Shown here in pieces: positions 1 through 6,698 of a DNA stretch of 6,698 bases. The stretch is from Paracoccaceae bacterium. Lineage in GTDB: Bacteria > Pseudomonadota > Alphaproteobacteria > Rhodobacterales > Rhodobacteraceae. The position numbers were made by a program, and so were the translations under genes. Positions within the stretch are counted from its first letter, which is position 1. Each line of letters begins with the position of its first letter. Below the pieces are notes generated by a model. It ran no database searches and was not told the origin of the DNA. It worked only from the letters and a program-made list of their open reading frames with translations. Where the stretch lies: NCBI GenBank assembly GCA_024742655.1, contig JANSYB010000123.1, positions 1 to 6,698 of the forward strand, in the 5' to 3' direction.

Positions 1-1109
1 ACCGGCACCGGAAAGGTGGTGCCGTCGAAATAGCTGGCCACGTTGAAGCCGTAGGCCTGCATTGTGCGGAACATGTTGTCGCAATGCCAATAGGCGTTGA
101 CGGCCGAGAAATCATCGCTGCGCACATTGTAATTGAACGCCCCCGCCGGGCCCGGAACGGTGGGCGGGGCAATCACCGGGTTCGATGTCTCGGCCACCTC
201 GACGAATTCGCCGGACAGTTCCTGTGGCGCGCCCGGTGTCAGCCCCGGCAGGGCCACCGAACTGCGCAGCGGGTTCAGGACCGCGTTGCTGGAGGCGCCG
301 GTCGCCGTCGTGGCCCCCTGCGTCTGCGGATCCCGCACGAAGACCATGCCCGTGGCACAGGCCACCAGCGCCCGCAGATAGAGCACGTCCCCACTGGCCG
401 GTTCGACCAGCATCCGCCAGTTGATCGGTTGTTCCTCCTTGCTGCGGGCCGCCTCGAACAGAACCTCGTCGCAGACGTAATGCTGCCCCTTGGCCAGCCC
501 GGCGATGGTGGTGTCCTTGAGTGACGGCACATGCACGTCGCCGGGGGTGAAGCAGCCACCCGCCTCATGGTCATGCGCCTCCTCGCGCTGATCGGGCTCA
601 TAGCGGTAAACGACCTGCCGTTCGATCACACCGCCATCCAGCCCCGGCAGATCGAAGCCCAGCATTTTCTTCAGCTGCGCCTTGGTTACCTTGCGCGTGC
701 CCGGCTCGGCGATCTGGTCGGGGTTGATGACCTCGATATTTCCATGCACCGAGGATTGCAGCGAGGCCACGTTCATCGACGCGCCGTCGATCTGCACGCC
801 CATCTGCGCCTTGAACACGTCGACGCCCATGATCTTCTGATTGTAGACGACGACCTTGGTGCCCGCCACGTCGCGCTCGGCCTCGAAGGCCACGACCGGC
901 CCGGCCGTGCCCGGCGCCTCCTCGCCGGTCAGCAAATCGTTTTCCAGCTGCACGCCGCTGAGATTCATGTCGGGCATGCGCTCTCGCAGGAACTGGTTGG
1001 CGACCTGCTGGGCGGTGCCTCCGGGAATGGCAGAGGCGCTTTCCTGCGGCGTGGAATAGCCGAAGAAAACAACCTCCCCGTATTCGTTTCGGATGACGTT
1101 CTGGGCCAT
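1..1109 (-). CDS. FTP/PepSY-type metallopeptidase-like protein, N-terminal part (runs off left edge)
   Basis: An uninterrupted minus-strand frame runs from ATG at 1109-1107 to the window edge (369 complete codons, no stop). The start is supported by an AGGAGG six bases upstream. Seen: no signal peptide (it begins MAQNVIRNEYGEVVFFGY). Residues ~75-115 contain NQKIMGVDVFKAQMGVQID, the style of the FTP propeptide of thermolysin/fungalysin peptidases. Residues ~160-250 include VIERQVVYRY and NWRMLVEPASGDVLYLRAL, which look PepSY-like. Residues 337-369 (VNAYWHCDNMFRTMQAYGF, then YFDGTTFPVPV) resemble the entry to an M36/M4 catalytic domain. A zinc-binding HExxH would lie beyond the left edge, so peptidase activity cannot be shown here. 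A Gly/Ala/Pro-rich stretch at ~265-330 is probably a linker. The lack of a secretion signal is odd for this family, and together with the divergent orientation it suggests a cytoplasmic partner of the rightward operon. The family call is moderate and the coding call strong. Confidence 0.72.
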   Translation of the reverse strand, partial: MAQNVIRNEYGEVVFFGYSTPQESASAIPGGTAQQVANQFLRERMPDMNLSGVQLENDLLTGEEAPGTAGPVVAFEAERDVAGTKVVVYNQKIMGVDVFKAQMGVQIDGASMNVASLQSSVHGNIEVINPDQIAEPGTRKVTKAQLKKMLGFDLPGLDGGVIERQVVYRYEPDQREEAHDHEAGGCFTPGDVHVPSLKDTTIAGLAKGQHYVCDEVLFEAARSKEEQPINWRMLVEPASGDVLYLRALVACATGMVFVRDPQTQGATTATGASSNAVLNPLRSSVALPGLTPGAPQELSGEFVEVAETSNPVIAPPTVPGPAGAFNYNVRSDDFSAVNAYWHCDNMFRTMQAYGFNVASYFDGTTFPVP

Positions 1110-1411: not shown

Positions 1412-3043
1412 ATGCTCCGCGATATTTACGCACAATTGGATCAGGGCGTCCCGATCCCGGACGAGGACGCGCTTGTCATAGAGTTGGTGTTTGCCACCCC
1501 CATCGACGCCGAGACGCTGACAGCGCGTCTGGCCACCGCCCTGCCCGGGGCGCCGGCGACCGTGACGCCTGTTTTCGAAGACGGGCCGGACCAGTATCAT
1601 TTCGTCCGTTTCGACGGGGTGACGGGACAGGGACAGGAGGCACTGGCCTTCGATCTGGCGCGCGCGTTGCGCCCGCAGGTCGAGGCAGATGAGGCCAACC
1701 CGGTCCTGTCGGACAGCCTTTACGGCGTGGCCGCCGTTGGGGCCACCGATACCGAAAGCCTTGCGGGTGGGTGTTCGACCCCGCGCGATGACGGCTGGCC
1801 CTGGGGCTGGGTGCATCCGCGTATCGGCACCCGTGCCGTCTGGGACACGCACACACGCGGCGCAGGCAGCACGGTGGCCGTGATCGACACCGGGCATTCC
1901 ACGCACCAGGAACTGACCGGCGCGATCCGGCAGCAGGGACAGCGCAATTTCGTCGAGGCCGGCACCGACGCGCATGACCGGTTCTCGCGCGGGATCCTGA
2001 AACATCCCGGCCACGGCACGCTGGTCTGTTCGGTCATCGCCTCTCGCGGGACGGTGAACGAACATGGCGATGTCACCTCGGGCGGGGGCATCACCGGCGC
2101 CGCCCCCGAGGCCACGATCCTGCCCATCCGGGCGATCAAATCGGTCATCAACTTCCGCCAGACGACCATCGCCCCGGCCATCGCGCATGCCATCAACGAA
2201 GGCGCCGACGTGATCGCCATGGCCCTTGGCGGGCCGACCCGCGTGGCCTCGACCGAGCGGGCGCTGCGCCTCGCGGTGGCGCGTGGGCTGGTCGTGGTCT
2301 GTGCCGCCGGCAATTGCTGGCCCCGGGTGGTCTTTCCCGCGGCCTATGCCGCCCAAGGGCTGTGCACCGCCGTGGCGGCGCTGAACCCCGACCTGACGCC
2401 GTGGGACAAGACAGGCTCGGGCCCCGAAGTGACGATCGCGAATTTCGGTGTGCATGTCTGGGGCGCGGCCAAGAACAAGGCCAGCGACCCCGATCACGGC
2501 ATTCGCCCCGCGCAGGGCACGACGCTGGCCACCTCGCTGACCGCGGGGGCCGCGGCCTTGTGGGTGGCGCATCACGGCGGGCGCGCGGCCTTGCGGCAAA
2601 AGGCCGACGCCGCGGGCACCACCGTGCAGGCGATGTTCGTGCATTGCCTGACTCACGGGATCACCAAGCCGCCCGTCTGGGGCGGGTCGGCCGCGCTTGG
2701 TGCGGGGCTGATCGATGCCGAACGGCTTCTGGCCTGTCCGCTGCCGACGGGGGCCGAGGCCCCTGCCCCCGCCGCGCCTGAGGCGACCGGCACAGCGCCC
2801 ACGCTGGCGCTGTTGCAATCGCACCTTGCCGGGCACGATCCCGAGGCTGCCGGTGAGATCGACGCGGAGATGGCCGATTTCGCCGGCGAATTGATCTGGC
2901 TCAGCCATCGCGCACAGGCGCGCGACCGCGCCGCCCGGACCAGTGCCGCCGAAAGCGTCAGCGGCGTGGATCCCGCCAGTGCCACGCTGGATCAGGTTCT
3001 GGCCGCCAAGCCCGCCCTGCGCGCGGCCCTGCGCAGGCCCTGA
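1412..3043 (+). CDS. Subtilase-fold (S8) protein with Thr at the catalytic Ser position
   Basis: The 543-residue product has no signal peptide or membrane segment. Residues ~20-100 form an alpha/beta, prodomain-like region. The S8 domain covers ~125-445: a WGWVHPRIGTRAVWD lead-in, Asp159 in VIDTGHS, His201 in GHGTLVCSV, oxyanion Asn301 in CAAGN, and a closing GAGLIDAERLL. D-H-N spacing fits subtilisin. The nucleophile motif GTSxA(T/S)P reads GTTLATSLTAGAAAL, so the Ser is Thr371 (ACG, 2522-2524) and the Pro is Ser. The usual APG before the substrate pocket is NFG (344-346). Activity is therefore doubtful: this may be a pseudoprotease or a Thr-nucleophile variant. An Ala/Pro linker (~455-470) leads to a helical C-terminal tail (~472-543), which could be a docking region. 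It is first in the operon, and the next gene starts 4 bases after the stop. The fold call is near certain and the catalytic state open. Confidence 0.93.
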   Translation: MLRDIYAQLDQGVPIPDEDALVIELVFATPIDAETLTARLATALPGAPATVTPVFEDGPDQYHFVRFDGVTGQGQEALAFDLARALRPQVEADEANPVLSDSLYGVAAVGATDTESLAGGCSTPRDDGWPWGWVHPRIGTRAVWDTHTRGAGSTVAVIDTGHSTHQELTGAIRQQGQRNFVEAGTDAHDRFSRGILKHPGHGTLVCSVIASRGTVNEHGDVTSGGGITGAAPEATILPIRAIKSVINFRQTTIAPAIAHAINEGADVIAMALGGPTRVASTERALRLAVARGLVVVCAAGNCWPRVVFPAAYAAQGLCTAVAALNPDLTPWDKTGSGPEVTIANFGVHVWGAAKNKASDPDHGIRPAQGTTLATSLTAGAAALWVAHHGGRAALRQKADAAGTTVQAMFVHCLTHGITKPPVWGGSAALGAGLIDAERLLACPLPTGAEAPAPAAPEATGTAPTLALLQSHLAGHDPEAAGEIDAEMADFAGELIWLSHRAQARDRAARTSAAESVSGVDPASATLDQVLAAKPALRAALRRP

Positions 3044-3047
3044 GCGG

Positions 3048-4862
3048 ATGCCCGCGCCGCTCCCGCCCGCCACGCTGGCCCCGCTCTTGCGGGACGACCG
3101 GGCGTTGCTGGACGCGGTGATGGCGGATATCTACGCCGACCGGGCGTGGAAGATGACCCTGGATATCCTGTCGATGATCGCACAGGACAACCAGATCACC
3201 CTCGCCGAGATGCTGTCGCAGACGCTGGATCGTGACGGGCTGACCGGGCCGTTCACCTCCGTGTTGCGCAACCGCAAACCCGGCCTTTTGCCGATGAAGC
3301 TGGACCTGCCGCCGGTCGATGCCGACGCGTTGATCGAAACGACCGTCGACCCCGCGAAAATGAGCACGTTCATGCAGACCGGCGATGCGCGCCGCTGCCT
3401 GATCGCCATCCGGTTCAAACGCGGCCAGCGCGCCGTCGAGAAAGGCAGTGGGGTTCTGGTGGGCCGGCGCCTTGTGCTGACGGCGGCCCATGTGATCGCC
3501 GATGCGCTGACGGACAGCGCCGGCCTGCCGCGACCACGCATCCTGGTCACCGACATCAACGGCGAGGATTACGCCGCGTGGCCGGTTTTCGTCTCTCCGG
3601 TGCACGAGCGCGAATTGCAGGGCCATGACGCGCCCGCCTCGGCCTATAACAGCCATACCGATGTGGCCCTGTTGCGCCTGTTCAAGCCGATCGGACGCGC
3701 CCACAAGTTCGGGCATTTCGACATCAACGGCGCGCGGCCCGACGCGCCGGGCACCCGGCAGTTGTGGCTGCTGCATTTTCCGGCAGGACAAGACAACGGC
3801 TTTCCCATCGCCGTCTACGAACGCAAGACCGACAGGGACATGTATCTGCGGCACAATGCGCATACCGCCGGTGGCAGTTCGGGCGGCGCGGGGTTTTCAA
3901 AAGAACTCGGCTTTCTGGGGCATCACCAGGCCGGCAAGGTCGGCGGCAATGGCGGGCGGCTGGTGCCCTATGAACGCTATGCCGAAAACGCCGACTTCAA
4001 GACCCAGATCAACGGCGACACGCCGCCCGATTACCTGTGGTCCATCGATGAAAGCCCGGACGGCCATTTCATCATTGGCCGCAACACCTATTTCGACGCG
4101 TTGTCGGCGATGATCGAGGGCAAGGCCCCGAACCTGCGCGGCATCTGGGTCAAGCGGATCGACGCGCAATTGCCCCCCACCGGTCTGGCCTTCGGGCATG
4201 ACATGCTCAGCGCCTACCTCAAGGCCTATGACGCGCGCGACGTCACGCACCGCCTTTCGACCGACCTTGTCAGCGATGACCTGCTGGCCGAGGTCAACGC
4301 CCAGATCCTCGGGCCCGAGACCCCGCTGCTGGCGTCGTCGGGCGTGCGCCCGGATGAAACCAGCCTTGCGGCCTCGGCGCGGGACCGGGCGATCACGCTG
4401 GCCGACCGGCTTGAGGGGTTCGCAGCCGCATCAGGGCAGACCCACTGGCTTTATTTCGACAACCCGCCCAACGGGTTATCGCGCACGGCGCAGGTCCAGA
4501 TGGAGCACCTGGTCTCGGAGATCCTGACCCGGCCCAGCCTGCGGCTGATCCTGTCGGGGTTCGAGACATTCACCCTGCGCAACCGGCTTTACTCCACGAT
4601 CCGCGAGGCCGGCGACCAGGGTCAGCCGGGCCTGCTGGTCGAGCATATCGGCGAATTCACCCGCGAGGACGTGTATCAGACCGTGGCGGCGATGGCCGAC
4701 AGTCTCGGCCTCGACTGGAAACCGGCGGTGGTCGATCACGTGGTGCGCAACGTTCTGCAAGGTATCAGCGACACGGCCGGGGTCTTTTCGGGTCAGGCCG
4801 CGAGCATGGTGGCCAAGGCGCTGCGCCGGCAGATCCGCACACAGGGGATCGCGACGCCATGA
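3048..4862 (+). CDS. Trypsin-like serine peptidase fused to a degenerate STAND (iSTAND-like) module
   Basis: The 604-residue product has no signal peptide. Residues ~5-60 are a small helical region that could be an effector-associated-type adapter. Residues ~120-305 are a trypsin-like domain with a complete triad: His148 in LTAAHVI, Asp205 in TDVALLRL, and Ser278 in GGSSGGAGF followed by LGFLGHHQAG. Residues ~340-604 resemble a STAND NTPase: IIGRNTYFDAL (compare FVGREAEL in the next gene), strand GIWVKRI (365-371), a Walker-B-like strand THWLYFDNPP with Asp471, and RLILSGFE. Between GIWVKRI and the following helix there is no GxxGxGK(S/T), so ATP binding by a P-loop is not expected. This matches inactive STAND modules known beside trypsin-like peptidases. 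The probable job is a cytoplasmic protease effector held or activated through its iSTAND part by the downstream STAND protein. The ATG at 3048 has only a weak AGG (3035-3037), so translation is probably coupled to the upstream gene. Its stop overlaps the next start. Confidence 0.9.
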   Translation: MPAPLPPATLAPLLRDDRALLDAVMADIYADRAWKMTLDILSMIAQDNQITLAEMLSQTLDRDGLTGPFTSVLRNRKPGLLPMKLDLPPVDADALIETTVDPAKMSTFMQTGDARRCLIAIRFKRGQRAVEKGSGVLVGRRLVLTAAHVIADALTDSAGLPRPRILVTDINGEDYAAWPVFVSPVHERELQGHDAPASAYNSHTDVALLRLFKPIGRAHKFGHFDINGARPDAPGTRQLWLLHFPAGQDNGFPIAVYERKTDRDMYLRHNAHTAGGSSGGAGFSKELGFLGHHQAGKVGGNGGRLVPYERYAENADFKTQINGDTPPDYLWSIDESPDGHFIIGRNTYFDALSAMIEGKAPNLRGIWVKRIDAQLPPTGLAFGHDMLSAYLKAYDARDVTHRLSTDLVSDDLLAEVNAQILGPETPLLASSGVRPDETSLAASARDRAITLADRLEGFAAASGQTHWLYFDNPPNGLSRTAQVQMEHLVSEILTRPSLRLILSGFETFTLRNRLYSTIREAGDQGQPGLLVEHIGEFTREDVYQTVAAMADSLGLDWKPAVVDHVVRNVLQGISDTAGVFSGQAASMVAKALRRQIRTQGIATP

Positions 4863-6698
4863 CAGAAATCGATCCCCACCTGAAAAGCCTCTATGAACGC
4901 GCCTATCTCTATGCCGCACTGCACGCGCAGTTCGCGCCTGCCGACGCGGTTCGCTGGGCCAATGGCGGCCGTCTGCCCCAGGATATCCAGATCACCGCGC
5001 GCCTGATGGCGATGCTGCGCCCCCACTGTGCCGATGCGCCGGCAAAGGCGGGTGATGCCGATGCGGCCCGGCAATGGTCCATGCGGCCAGCGGCGCGCCA
5101 CTACGTGTTGTCCGAGGACAAGTTCGACGCCGACCTCGTCCGCCAATTCGACACGCCGATTGCCGATGCCCGGCTGGGACGCGGCCGATATGCGCCCGCG
5201 GCCCTTGACCGGCTGGTCCGGCTTGGCGACACGGGCACGCAGGCCGATATCGCCACCATCGCGGGCACGTTGGACCGGGCCGGACCGGATGCCCCCGGCG
5301 CCCCGCAGGTGGTGGCGCTGCGCAGTCTTTTGAACCGTCACAGCGCCGAGGCGCGCACCGATGCGATCCTGGCCGATGGTTTCGTCGGGCGCGAGGCGGA
5401 ACTCGAACGCATCGCCGACACCCTCGCCAATCCGCAATCCGAGCCACCGTTGCGGGCGATCTATATTTCCGGCCTTGCCGGGATCGGGAAATCCTACCTG
5501 CTGGAACGGGCGATCCAGATGGCCCGCCTCGATCAGCAACCGGTCATGGTGCGGCTGGATTTCGACCGCTCCGGCCTCGATGTGCAGGACGAACAGGCGT
5601 TTTACGACGAAATCTCGCGGCAGGTGGGCGACAGCCTGCCGCGCATGGCGCTGGCGCTGCGTGATCTGCGTCTGGGCGCCACGCAGGCGGATGTCGCCCT
5701 CAGCAAGGCGGCGCTGCAAACCGACCGGCCGGCGCAGGATCTGCAACGCGGCCTGCTGTCGGCCATTGCCGCGGCGATCAACGGCGCCGACAAGCTGTTG
5801 TTGATCGTGCTCGACACGCTGGAGGTTCTGCGCTCTGAGGGGGAGACACGCATTCCTCTGCTCTTCGAACGGCTGGACCGGCTGGCCCTGGCCGGGATCG
5901 ACCGGATCGCCATCATCGCCGCGGGGCGGGGTCAGGCCATGGACCCGGCGCCGGATCGCCTGCTGGGCCCGCCCCTCTCTCTGAGCGGGCTGGAAGATCA
6001 CGCAGTGGCCGATTTCCTGCGCCGCCGCGACGTGCCCGAGGCCCTTTGGCCCCGCATCAACCGGCTGGCCGGTGGCAATCCGCTGTTCCTGCAACTGGCG
6101 GTCAAGGCCGTGCAGGAGGGCGCGTTCGACGACACCGACCTGCCCGAGGCGGCCACGGCAGAGGGGGTCGGCGGATATCTTTACCGCGCAATTCTCAGCC
6201 GCGTGCCCGATACGCTGCGCGGCCTGGCAAGCGAGGGGTTGATCCTGCGGCAGGTCGACCGGGCGGCATTGCGCGAGGTGATCGCGCCCGTTATCGCCCC
6301 CGATCTGGATGCGGCCGCCCAGGCGCGCATGTTTGACGCTTTGCGCGACCAGCACTGGCTGGTCAGCAGCGACCCGGCCGCGGGCACCTTGCGGCACAAC
6401 GCGGATATGCGGCGCGCCGTCCTGCCCCTGATCTATGCCGCCTCGCCCGACCGGACGGCCCGCATCAATGCCCGCGCGGCGCAGTGGTACGACACGCAGG
6501 ACAAACCGTTCGAGGCCCTCTATCACCGGCTGCAACTGACCCGCGCCGGCGAAGACATGCCCGAAATCCCGCTCGAACTGGCCCGGCAATTCGATCCCTT
6601 CCTGCTCGAAGAGCTGCCGCCGATGGCGCGCGACGCGGTGCGCCACGCCCAGGGCCTGCGGTCGGATTTCGGCCGCATGGGCCGCGCACAGCAAGCCG
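4859..6698 (+). CDS. STAND P-loop NTPase (runs off right edge)
   Basis: The frame is open from ATG 4859 to the window end (613 complete codons, no stop). It begins inside the previous stop (ATGA). AGGGGA at 4843-4848 is a weak ribosome binding site. Residues 1-60 are a small helical N-terminal domain and ~75-170 a second helical stretch, both candidate adapters. The NTPase starts at FVGREAELERI (175-185). Walker A is GLAGIGKSYL with Lys211. Walker B is LLLIVLDTLEVL with Asp319 and Glu322. A sensor-like arginine is Arg357 in IIAAGRGQ, and GNPLFLQLA (406-414) is the GxP motif of STAND/AP-ATPases. A winged-helix-like segment (~420-500) and then helical repeats (AAQWYDTQDKPFEALYHRL) suggest a TPR-like sensor continuing outside the window. 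Expected role: a cytoplasmic ATP-dependent switch that oligomerises on sensing a trigger and activates the protease encoded just upstream. It could also be a STAND transcriptional regulator, since its C-terminus is unseen. Confidence 0.9.
   Translation, partial: MTEIDPHLKSLYERAYLYAALHAQFAPADAVRWANGGRLPQDIQITARLMAMLRPHCADAPAKAGDADAARQWSMRPAARHYVLSEDKFDADLVRQFDTPIADARLGRGRYAPAALDRLVRLGDTGTQADIATIAGTLDRAGPDAPGAPQVVALRSLLNRHSAEARTDAILADGFVGREAELERIADTLANPQSEPPLRAIYISGLAGIGKSYLLERAIQMARLDQQPVMVRLDFDRSGLDVQDEQAFYDEISRQVGDSLPRMALALRDLRLGATQADVALSKAALQTDRPAQDLQRGLLSAIAAAINGADKLLLIVLDTLEVLRSEGETRIPLLFERLDRLALAGIDRIAIIAAGRGQAMDPAPDRLLGPPLSLSGLEDHAVADFLRRRDVPEALWPRINRLAGGNPLFLQLAVKAVQEGAFDDTDLPEAATAEGVGGYLYRAILSRVPDTLRGLASEGLILRQVDRAALREVIAPVIAPDLDAAAQARMFDALRDQHWLVSSDPAAGTLRHNADMRRAVLPLIYAASPDRTARINARAAQWYDTQDKPFEALYHRLQLTRAGEDMPEIPLELARQFDPFLLEELPPMARDAVRHAQGLRSDFGRMGRAQQA

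What the first reader, a model, noticed from the sequence alone, without database searches (positions are those of the whole stretch)
1412..6698. Candidate conflict system: pseudo-subtilase, trypsin-iSTAND and STAND NTPase in one coupled operon
Three same-strand genes with 4-base spacing and an ATGA overlap encode a subtilase-fold protein, a trypsin-like protease with a dead STAND module, and an active-type STAND NTPase. STAND/trypsin pairs are known in bacterial immune-like systems (for example, AVAST type 1 pairs a trypsin-like protease with a STAND protein, and effector-associated-domain networks use iSTAND modules). I do not know a described system with an Ser-to-Thr subtilase as the first gene.
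Basis: partly seen in the sequence, partly recalled or inferred. Interest (0 to 1): 0.8.

Follow-up and report, generated by a model that had tools for sequence, protein, structure and literature searches.

The report
Threonine subtilase in bacterial NLR operon
A bacterium related to Roseovarius carries homologues of LypA and LypB, parts of the immune-like LypABC cell-lysis system of Caulobacter, preceded by a subtilisin-type protease gene that has threonine in place of the usual active-site serine and is predicted to be switched on by its partner proteases.

Summary
In detail: subtilase at 1412-3043 (Thr371 for Ser), trypsin with a degenerate ATPase-like C-terminus at 3048-4862, STAND NTPase at 4859-6697, cut off by the contig end. 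Genes 2 and 3 are homologues of LypA and LypB of Caulobacter LypABC, which resembles CARD-NLR anti-phage systems; relatives carry the fourth gene, trypsin-NucA (LypC). The core is thus known, within 'System 3' of Kaur et al. 2020. New here is the first gene: a subtilase directly upstream of lypA in 11 of 19 readable loci and in the window. Thr stands for Ser in 121 of 121 sequences examined, with Asp, His and oxyanion Asn intact; sister subtilases, some fused to NucA or trypsin, have Ser (119 of 119 scorable), so one switch fits best. Subtilase and LypC are conserved, LypA and LypB diverge. A 61-84-residue stretch of LypB goes with the subtilase (9 of 10 loci; 0 of 8 without it). Inferred: LypB senses an invader and activates LypA; LypA/LypC, predicted Glu-specific, cut the subtilase zymogen after conserved Glu115. 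Whether the Thr subtilase is catalytic is untested. New variant of a known kind.

The parts
1412..3043 (+). Subtilase (S8) with an N-terminal prodomain-like domain (aa ~20-97), flexible linker (aa 98-128), catalytic domain (aa ~128-445) and helical C-terminus
1754..1756 (+). Codon of Glu115, conserved residue in the low-confidence linker between prodomain and catalytic domain; candidate cleavage site (inferred)
   Evidence: 94 of 97 sequences at >=50% identity (window included) and all 11 operon loci read; 103 of all 121; residues 113-116 pLDDT <50
2522..2524 (+). Codon of Thr371, at the position of the catalytic Ser of subtilases
   Evidence: 121 of 121 sequences, i.e. the window and the 120 listed of 207 homologues; aligns with Ser in two other S8 proteins of the genome
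3048..4862 (+). LypA-like protein: N-terminal helical bundle (aa 1-80), trypsin-like protease (aa ~102-323), ATPase-like module without Walker motifs (aa ~338-604)
   Evidence: Pfam Trypsin_2; model pLDDT 85.6; alignment with Caulobacter LypA homologues
3879..3881 (+). Codon of Ser278, predicted protease nucleophile (aligns with LypA Ser262)
   Evidence: invariant 24 of 24; alignment with L027, whose Ser262 matches the published numbering
4859..6697 (+). LypB-like STAND NTPase, truncated by the contig end (about 1010-1090 aa in most relatives)
   Evidence: Pfam AAA_16; alignment A4; lengths in relatives
5489..5491 (+). Codon of Lys211, Walker A lysine (GLAGIGKS)
   Evidence: invariant 12 of 12

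Best explanation
The window holds a subtilase gene followed by homologues of lypA and lypB of the CARD-NLR-like LypABC system; it likely works as an invader-triggered protease cascade in which the subtilase would be a zymogen executioner with a threonine nucleophile. Shown by sequence: the homology to LypABC, the gene order, the lypC partner in relatives, and the invariant Thr. Inferred: LypB (STAND) senses a phage or other cue, binds nucleotide and oligomerises; it recruits LypA through LypA's N-terminal helical domain (two-hybrid evidence exists for Caulobacter, Banks et al.). LypA's protease, and LypC's, then cut targets after Glu. One target would be the subtilase: cutting after Glu115 would free its catalytic domain from the docked prodomain. 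Ser-to-Thr would keep the subtilase from maturing itself, so that it fires only on command. The released proteases, with or without the NucA domain of LypC, would then kill or stop the cell.
For: Homology: a scan with the LypA-like alignment returned loci of C. vibrioides (L027), C. radicis and C. zeae. All nine residues that the paper mutates (LypA S262, T356, S360, F361; LypB K230, D335; LypC S296, H471, N505) carry the stated letters in L027, so L027 is the published system. Order subtilase-lypA-lypB-lypC in 10 loci (L021 with lypC cut by the contig end), subtilase-lypA in L018, first three genes in the window. Same 4 of 394 genomes. Two changes of subtilase presence on the LypB tree, read as one gain and one loss. 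Coupling: LypB stretch of 61-84 aa in 9 of 10 subtilase loci, 20-31 aa in 8 of 8 without. Catalysis: D159, H201, N301 in 121 of 121; mean pairwise identity subtilase 0.60, LypC 0.56, LypA 0.39, LypB 0.37 over 36 pairs of 9 loci. Zymogen: the model matches Pro-S324A entries with the prodomain part (that these are uncleaved pro-Tk-subtilisin is recalled). Cleavage: Glu115; the six best PDB matches of the LypA-like profile by sequence are glutamyl endopeptidases, and in the one alignment shown the His of GIHYGG lies on His293, 24 of 24; the like His of LypC is kept in 14 of 14 aligned. That this His gives Glu specificity is recalled.
Confidence: 0.5

Rival explanations
1. The subtilase is a true pseudoprotease: it likely binds peptide-like ligands in its conserved cleft (LypB's extra stretch, LypA, or an invader protein) and acts as sensor, scaffold or brake of LypABC without cutting anything.
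For: Ser is replaced by Thr in 121 of 121 sequences, while the sister family keeps Ser in 119 of 119 scorable members; the model has the prodomain placed as in pro-subtilisin; the LypB stretch goes with it. Kaur et al. report catalytically inactive trypsin and caspase domains in effector positions and read them as regulators or peptide binders (passages).
Against: Asp, His and oxyanion Asn are invariant, which dead enzymes usually do not keep (general knowledge).
Confidence: 0.35
2. As in Caulobacter, the operon mainly controls lysis for release of gene transfer agents (GTAs); the subtilase would be an added lysis factor. This can hold together with either reading of the subtilase.
For: LypABC has this role in C. 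crescentus. The GTA family PF13547 is found in 7 of 8 genomes with the operon, the window's included.
Against: G064 has lypABC but neither PF13547 nor PF09343 (PF09343 was also missed in the window's draft genome). The operon is rare (4 of 394 genomes of the family sample); that GTAs are widespread in this order is recalled, and GTA genes in genomes without the operon were not tested here. Rhodobacter capsulatus uses a holin-endolysin.
Confidence: 0.15
3. The subtilase is an unrelated neighbour that travels with the operon by chance.
For: Two Roseovarius operons lack it.
Against: Gaps of 8-43 bases to lypA in 9 loci, with starts chosen by script, and 4 bases in the window; two changes in all on the tree; no copy elsewhere in the genomes of L016 and L017; a Ser relative beside a NucA gene in Rhodopseudomonas.
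Confidence: 0.03

Closest known systems
LypABC of Caulobacter crescentus (Banks et al. 2026, PMC13236601; abstract, sections 9 and 13 and passages seen)
   Same: Genes 2 and 3 are homologues of LypA and LypB in the same order; lypC (trypsin-endonuclease) follows in relatives
   Different: A Thr subtilase precedes lypA and LypB of most such loci carries an extra stretch; the word subtilisin was not found in that paper's main text
NucA-trypsin conflict systems, 'System 3' (Kaur et al. 2020, PMC7159879; section 32 and passages seen)
   Same: NucA endonuclease and trypsin core (seen in relatives of the window), optional STAND component with trypsin and Death-like domain, subtilisin S8 domains mentioned
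   Different: There the subtilisin is described in the same polypeptide as NucA; no Ser-to-Thr change is described in the section read
S8 peptidase with WD40 repeats beside NACHT/STAND targets of a diversity-generating retroelement in Thiohalocapsa (PMC10907252; passages seen)
   Same: A subtilase-family gene neighbours STAND proteins in a putative conflict locus
   Different: That S8 protein has C-terminal WD40 repeats; its sequence was not compared here
Bacterial gasdermin / CARD anti-phage systems (Wein et al. 2025; not held, known only through Banks et al.)
   Same: CARD-bearing trypsin protease plus NLR-like ATPase
   Different: Effector there is a gasdermin; none matched among the operon genes scanned
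Nuclease-protease pairs of Hachiman and AVAST (Tuck et al. 2025, PMC12799240; abstract, part of the introduction and passages seen)
   Same: Trypsin-like protease activates a pro-effector inside a defence system
   Different: The effector is a metallo-beta-lactamase-type nuclease, cut after Ile in Hachiman, not a subtilase

Membership tests
LypABC / CARD-NLR-like | LypA: trypsin-like protease with catalytic Ser and C-terminal ATPase-like domain lacking Walker A/B | tested here: met
   28-34% identity to seven distant homologues incl. three Caulobacter (469-598 columns); Ser278 aligned with Ser262; weak in-register profile match to the STAND
LypABC / CARD-NLR-like | LypA N-terminal CARD-like helical domain | tested here: inconclusive
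   Five helices predicted in aa 7-76; no PDB sequence match; the whole-protein fold comparison tested only the protease part
LypABC / CARD-NLR-like | LypB: AAA+/STAND ATPase with Walker A and B | tested here: met
   G205, G210, K211, D319 invariant in 12 of 12 incl. C. vibrioides LypB
LypABC / CARD-NLR-like | LypB C-terminal TPR-like repeats | not tested
   Lies beyond the contig end in the window; repeats not analysed in relatives
LypABC / CARD-NLR-like | lypC (trypsin-endonuclease) downstream | tested here: inconclusive
   Contig ends inside lypB and no lypC found in the draft genome; present in 17 of 19 related loci (L021 in part; L018 ends before lypB, L032 within 400 bases of it) and in both plasmid loci
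LypABC / CARD-NLR-like | Controls cell lysis / gene transfer agent release | not testable with these tools
   Needs experiment
Kaur System 3 (NucA-trypsin) | NucA-type endonuclease with trypsin-like peptidase in one operon | tested here: inconclusive
   Met in relatives (PF01223 E 2e-42 with Trypsin_2 in L010); not readable in the window
AVAST with nuclease-protease pair (type 1 by recall) | MBL-type nuclease gene beside the trypsin gene (pair as described in PMC12799240) | tested here: not met
   No MBL match among the four window proteins; PADLOC gave only LmuA E 1.4e-4 for the trypsin and no Avs model
Catalytically standard S8 subtilase | Asp-His-Ser triad with oxyanion Asn | tested here: not met
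   Asp, His, Asn present, Ser replaced by Thr, 121 of 121

The most novel reading that the evidence does not exclude
Rhodobacterales have built a bacterial inflammasome-like pathway whose executioner is a threonine-nucleophile subtilase: a single Ser-to-Thr switch took away self-maturation, so that the zymogen can be fired only when Glu-specific proteases on an activated NLR cut after Glu115, and the extra stretch of the NLR is the subtilase's docking or substrate site.
Probability: 0.22. Interest if true: 0.82.

Novelty: new variant of a known kind. Interest (0 to 1): 0.52.

Why it matters
For LypABC the lytic effector is unknown (Banks et al.). Here a lineage of the same system carries an extra, highly conserved protease gene that is a candidate effector or regulator in that lineage. 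A Ser-to-Thr change found in every subtilase examined, with the rest of the active site intact, raises a clean enzymological question (Thr-nucleophile subtilisin or pseudoprotease) that one assay can settle, and would link NLR-type sensing to a protease cascade in bacteria.

Tried and rejected
AVAST type 1 as the parent system: rejected. Defence-island context: 87 flanking proteins were picked by script from 13 loci and 68 from 11 loci were scanned; 19 were left out (all 15 from Caulobacter loci L026 and L027, 4 of 5 from L050). PADLOC at E 1e-10 matched 7 families in one protein each; I did not trace which proteins. A follow-up on six proteins (five of the 68 and one from L056) matched nothing at 1e-4. 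Pfam showed mostly transporters and metabolic enzymes in the 25 of 67 families listed. ORF picking was by length, and some picks in these G+C-rich genomes are probably shadow frames. Viral contigs: 7 candidate stretches for the subtilase and 22 for the LypA-like gene, none confirmed. PHROGs: only a protease family for the subtilase. Other first genes as substitutes for the subtilase: L022 has a tyrosinase and a copper-chaperone gene upstream, L012/L016 a BenE and L013/L017 a BCCT transporter, so no swapped effector seen. PDB sequence search with the helical domain or with C. vibrioides LypA: nothing. The profile comparison on whole proteins was weak (probability 2.2, E 0.021); cut to domains it stayed low in probability (10.7) though above ten shuffles. 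Rows dropped before counts: L029-L031 of the 19 loci (trypsin-only matches) and G037 (E 2.5e-4, residues 109-227 only). 14 of the 19 LypC sequences were aligned for the residue counts; L021, L026, L028, L050 and L052 were not. Class sample: subtilase only in the own genome among 385. In some searches at most three candidates a genome were scored, so misses are possible. Literature: a subtilase with LypABC/CARD-NLR was sought (open-licence PMC only) and not seen in the listings; Wein et al. 2025 is not held and may describe variants; no supplement was read.
Full report
What is there. The window is one whole contig, G000:C473, of a draft genome (745 contigs, 85% complete). Three plus-strand genes lie at 1412-3043, 3048-4862 and 4859-6697 with a 4-base gap and an ATGA overlap. 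They encode a subtilase, a trypsin-like protease with a C-terminal extension, and an AAA_16/STAND NTPase. The third gene runs off the contig.

Identity of genes 2 and 3. A scan of genome contigs with an alignment of gene-2 relatives returned 19 loci; 3 are trypsin-only matches and 16 hold a real relative. They include Caulobacter vibrioides, C. radicis and C. zeae. The loci read trypsin-ATPase, STAND, trypsin-NucA where the contig is long enough. A 2026 paper describes this trio in C. crescentus as LypABC, a CARD-NLR-like system needed for gene-transfer-agent lysis, and names complete operons in C. crescentus, C. radicis, C. zeae and C. endophyticus. All nine residues it mutates carry the stated letters in our C. 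vibrioides locus: LypA S262, T356, S360, F361 and LypB K230, D335, and LypC S296, H471, N505 in the one start frame that fits, 662 aa long. The window's gene 2 aligns with C. vibrioides LypA at 32% over 469 columns (E 3e-52) and gene 3 is 35% identical to its LypB. A like architecture was predicted earlier as 'System 3', the NucA-trypsin systems of alphaproteobacteria.

The fourth gene. In 17 of 19 related loci and both plasmid loci a trypsin-NucA gene follows the STAND gene; in L010 it matches Endonuclease_NS (E 2e-42) and Trypsin_2. Of 14 LypC proteins aligned (of 19), the catalytic Ser is kept in 14 and the DRGH nuclease motif in 13; the Paracoccus plasmid copy lacks it. This agrees with the report that the nuclease is dispensable in Caulobacter. 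In the window's own genome the gene was not found; it may lie beyond the contig end.

The first gene. A subtilase precedes lypA in L014, L015, L018, L019, L020, L021, L023, L050, L051, L052 and the Paracoccus plasmid L055, and in the window; these are Rhodobacterales as far as named (L021 is a MAG named only Alphaproteobacteria and groups with L019; L050-L052 are of the window's family). It is absent upstream in L016, L017, L022, L026, L027, L028, L032 and the Paraburkholderia plasmid L056; L024 and L025 start too near the contig edge to tell. In a family sample the subtilase and the LypA-like gene were found in the same 4 of 394 genomes, the own one included. In 146 near relatives the subtilase was in 3 and the LypA-like gene in 5, own genome included, plus one weak trypsin-only match not counted. 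A LypB tree needs two changes, most simply one gain and one loss, the loss in the Roseovarius pair L016/L017. Those two genomes hold no copy elsewhere, with L015 found as positive control.

Ser to Thr. In the window and the 120 listed of 207 homologues, Thr stands at the nucleophile in 121 of 121, and Asp159, His201 and Asn301 in 121 of 121. A Ser-bearing relative turned up in Rhodopseudomonas rhenobacensis, beside a NucA gene. A search with it gave 1435 homologues; of the 120 listed, 119 carry Ser and one is too short to tell; some are fused to NucA or to a trypsin domain. On a tree of 25 Thr and 24 Ser proteins, with the nucleophile column left out, the Thr proteins are one side of one branch (SH-aLRT 95). 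That tree is a quick one, sampled from two searches, with a long-branched outgroup, so the direction Ser to Thr rests mainly on Ser being the rule in subtilases.

Signs of coupling. Mean pairwise identity in 36 pairs from 9 loci is 0.60 for the subtilase, 0.56 for LypC, 0.39 for LypA and 0.37 for LypB: the protease/effector genes are conserved and the sensor pair diverges. LypB has a stretch of 61-84 residues between its RSDxGR motif and the next conserved block in 9 of 10 subtilase loci, 20-31 in 8 of 8 loci without it (L024 and L025, status unknown, 31 and 23); the exception is L051 with 21. The pair that lost the subtilase also lacks the stretch. Only two independent comparisons exist, so this is a lead, not a test.

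Defence or gene-transfer agents? The rare, patchy distribution and the plasmid copies favour defence in my reading, but no phenotype is known.

Noticed in passing
window 3-1109, - strand: Divergent, truncated gene with a weak thermolysin-propeptide (FTP) match (E 0.083); no relative of it was seen in the operon loci compared by blastp.
   Followed up: partly
window 1412-3043 (Cys121 and Cys302 of the subtilase): Two cysteines, one in the linker and one next to the oxyanion Asn, are conserved in both the Thr set (119 and 119 of 121) and the Ser sister set (117 and 120 of 120); possible disulfide, metal or redox link, untested.
   Followed up: no
L055 17060-19036: LypC of the Paracoccus sp. MA plasmid has lost the DRGH nuclease motif while keeping the protease Ser.
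   Followed up: partly
L025 9014-12207, - strand: Beside lypABC in Rhodopseudomonas rhenobacensis lie two trypsin genes, one with an EAD1 domain (E 6.7e-20), as in Kaur's EAD1 version of System 3.
   Followed up: no
L056: LypABC-like trio on a conjugative Paraburkholderia plasmid among transposases, DUF262 and TcmP genes.
   Followed up: no
L022 3115-6918, - strand: CHAT-domain protein of 1268 aa near the Ectorhizobium lypABC.
   Followed up: no
L010 9144-10505: Gene with a partial Recombinase match directly downstream of lypC in a Roseovarius MAG, a hint of mobility.
   Followed up: no
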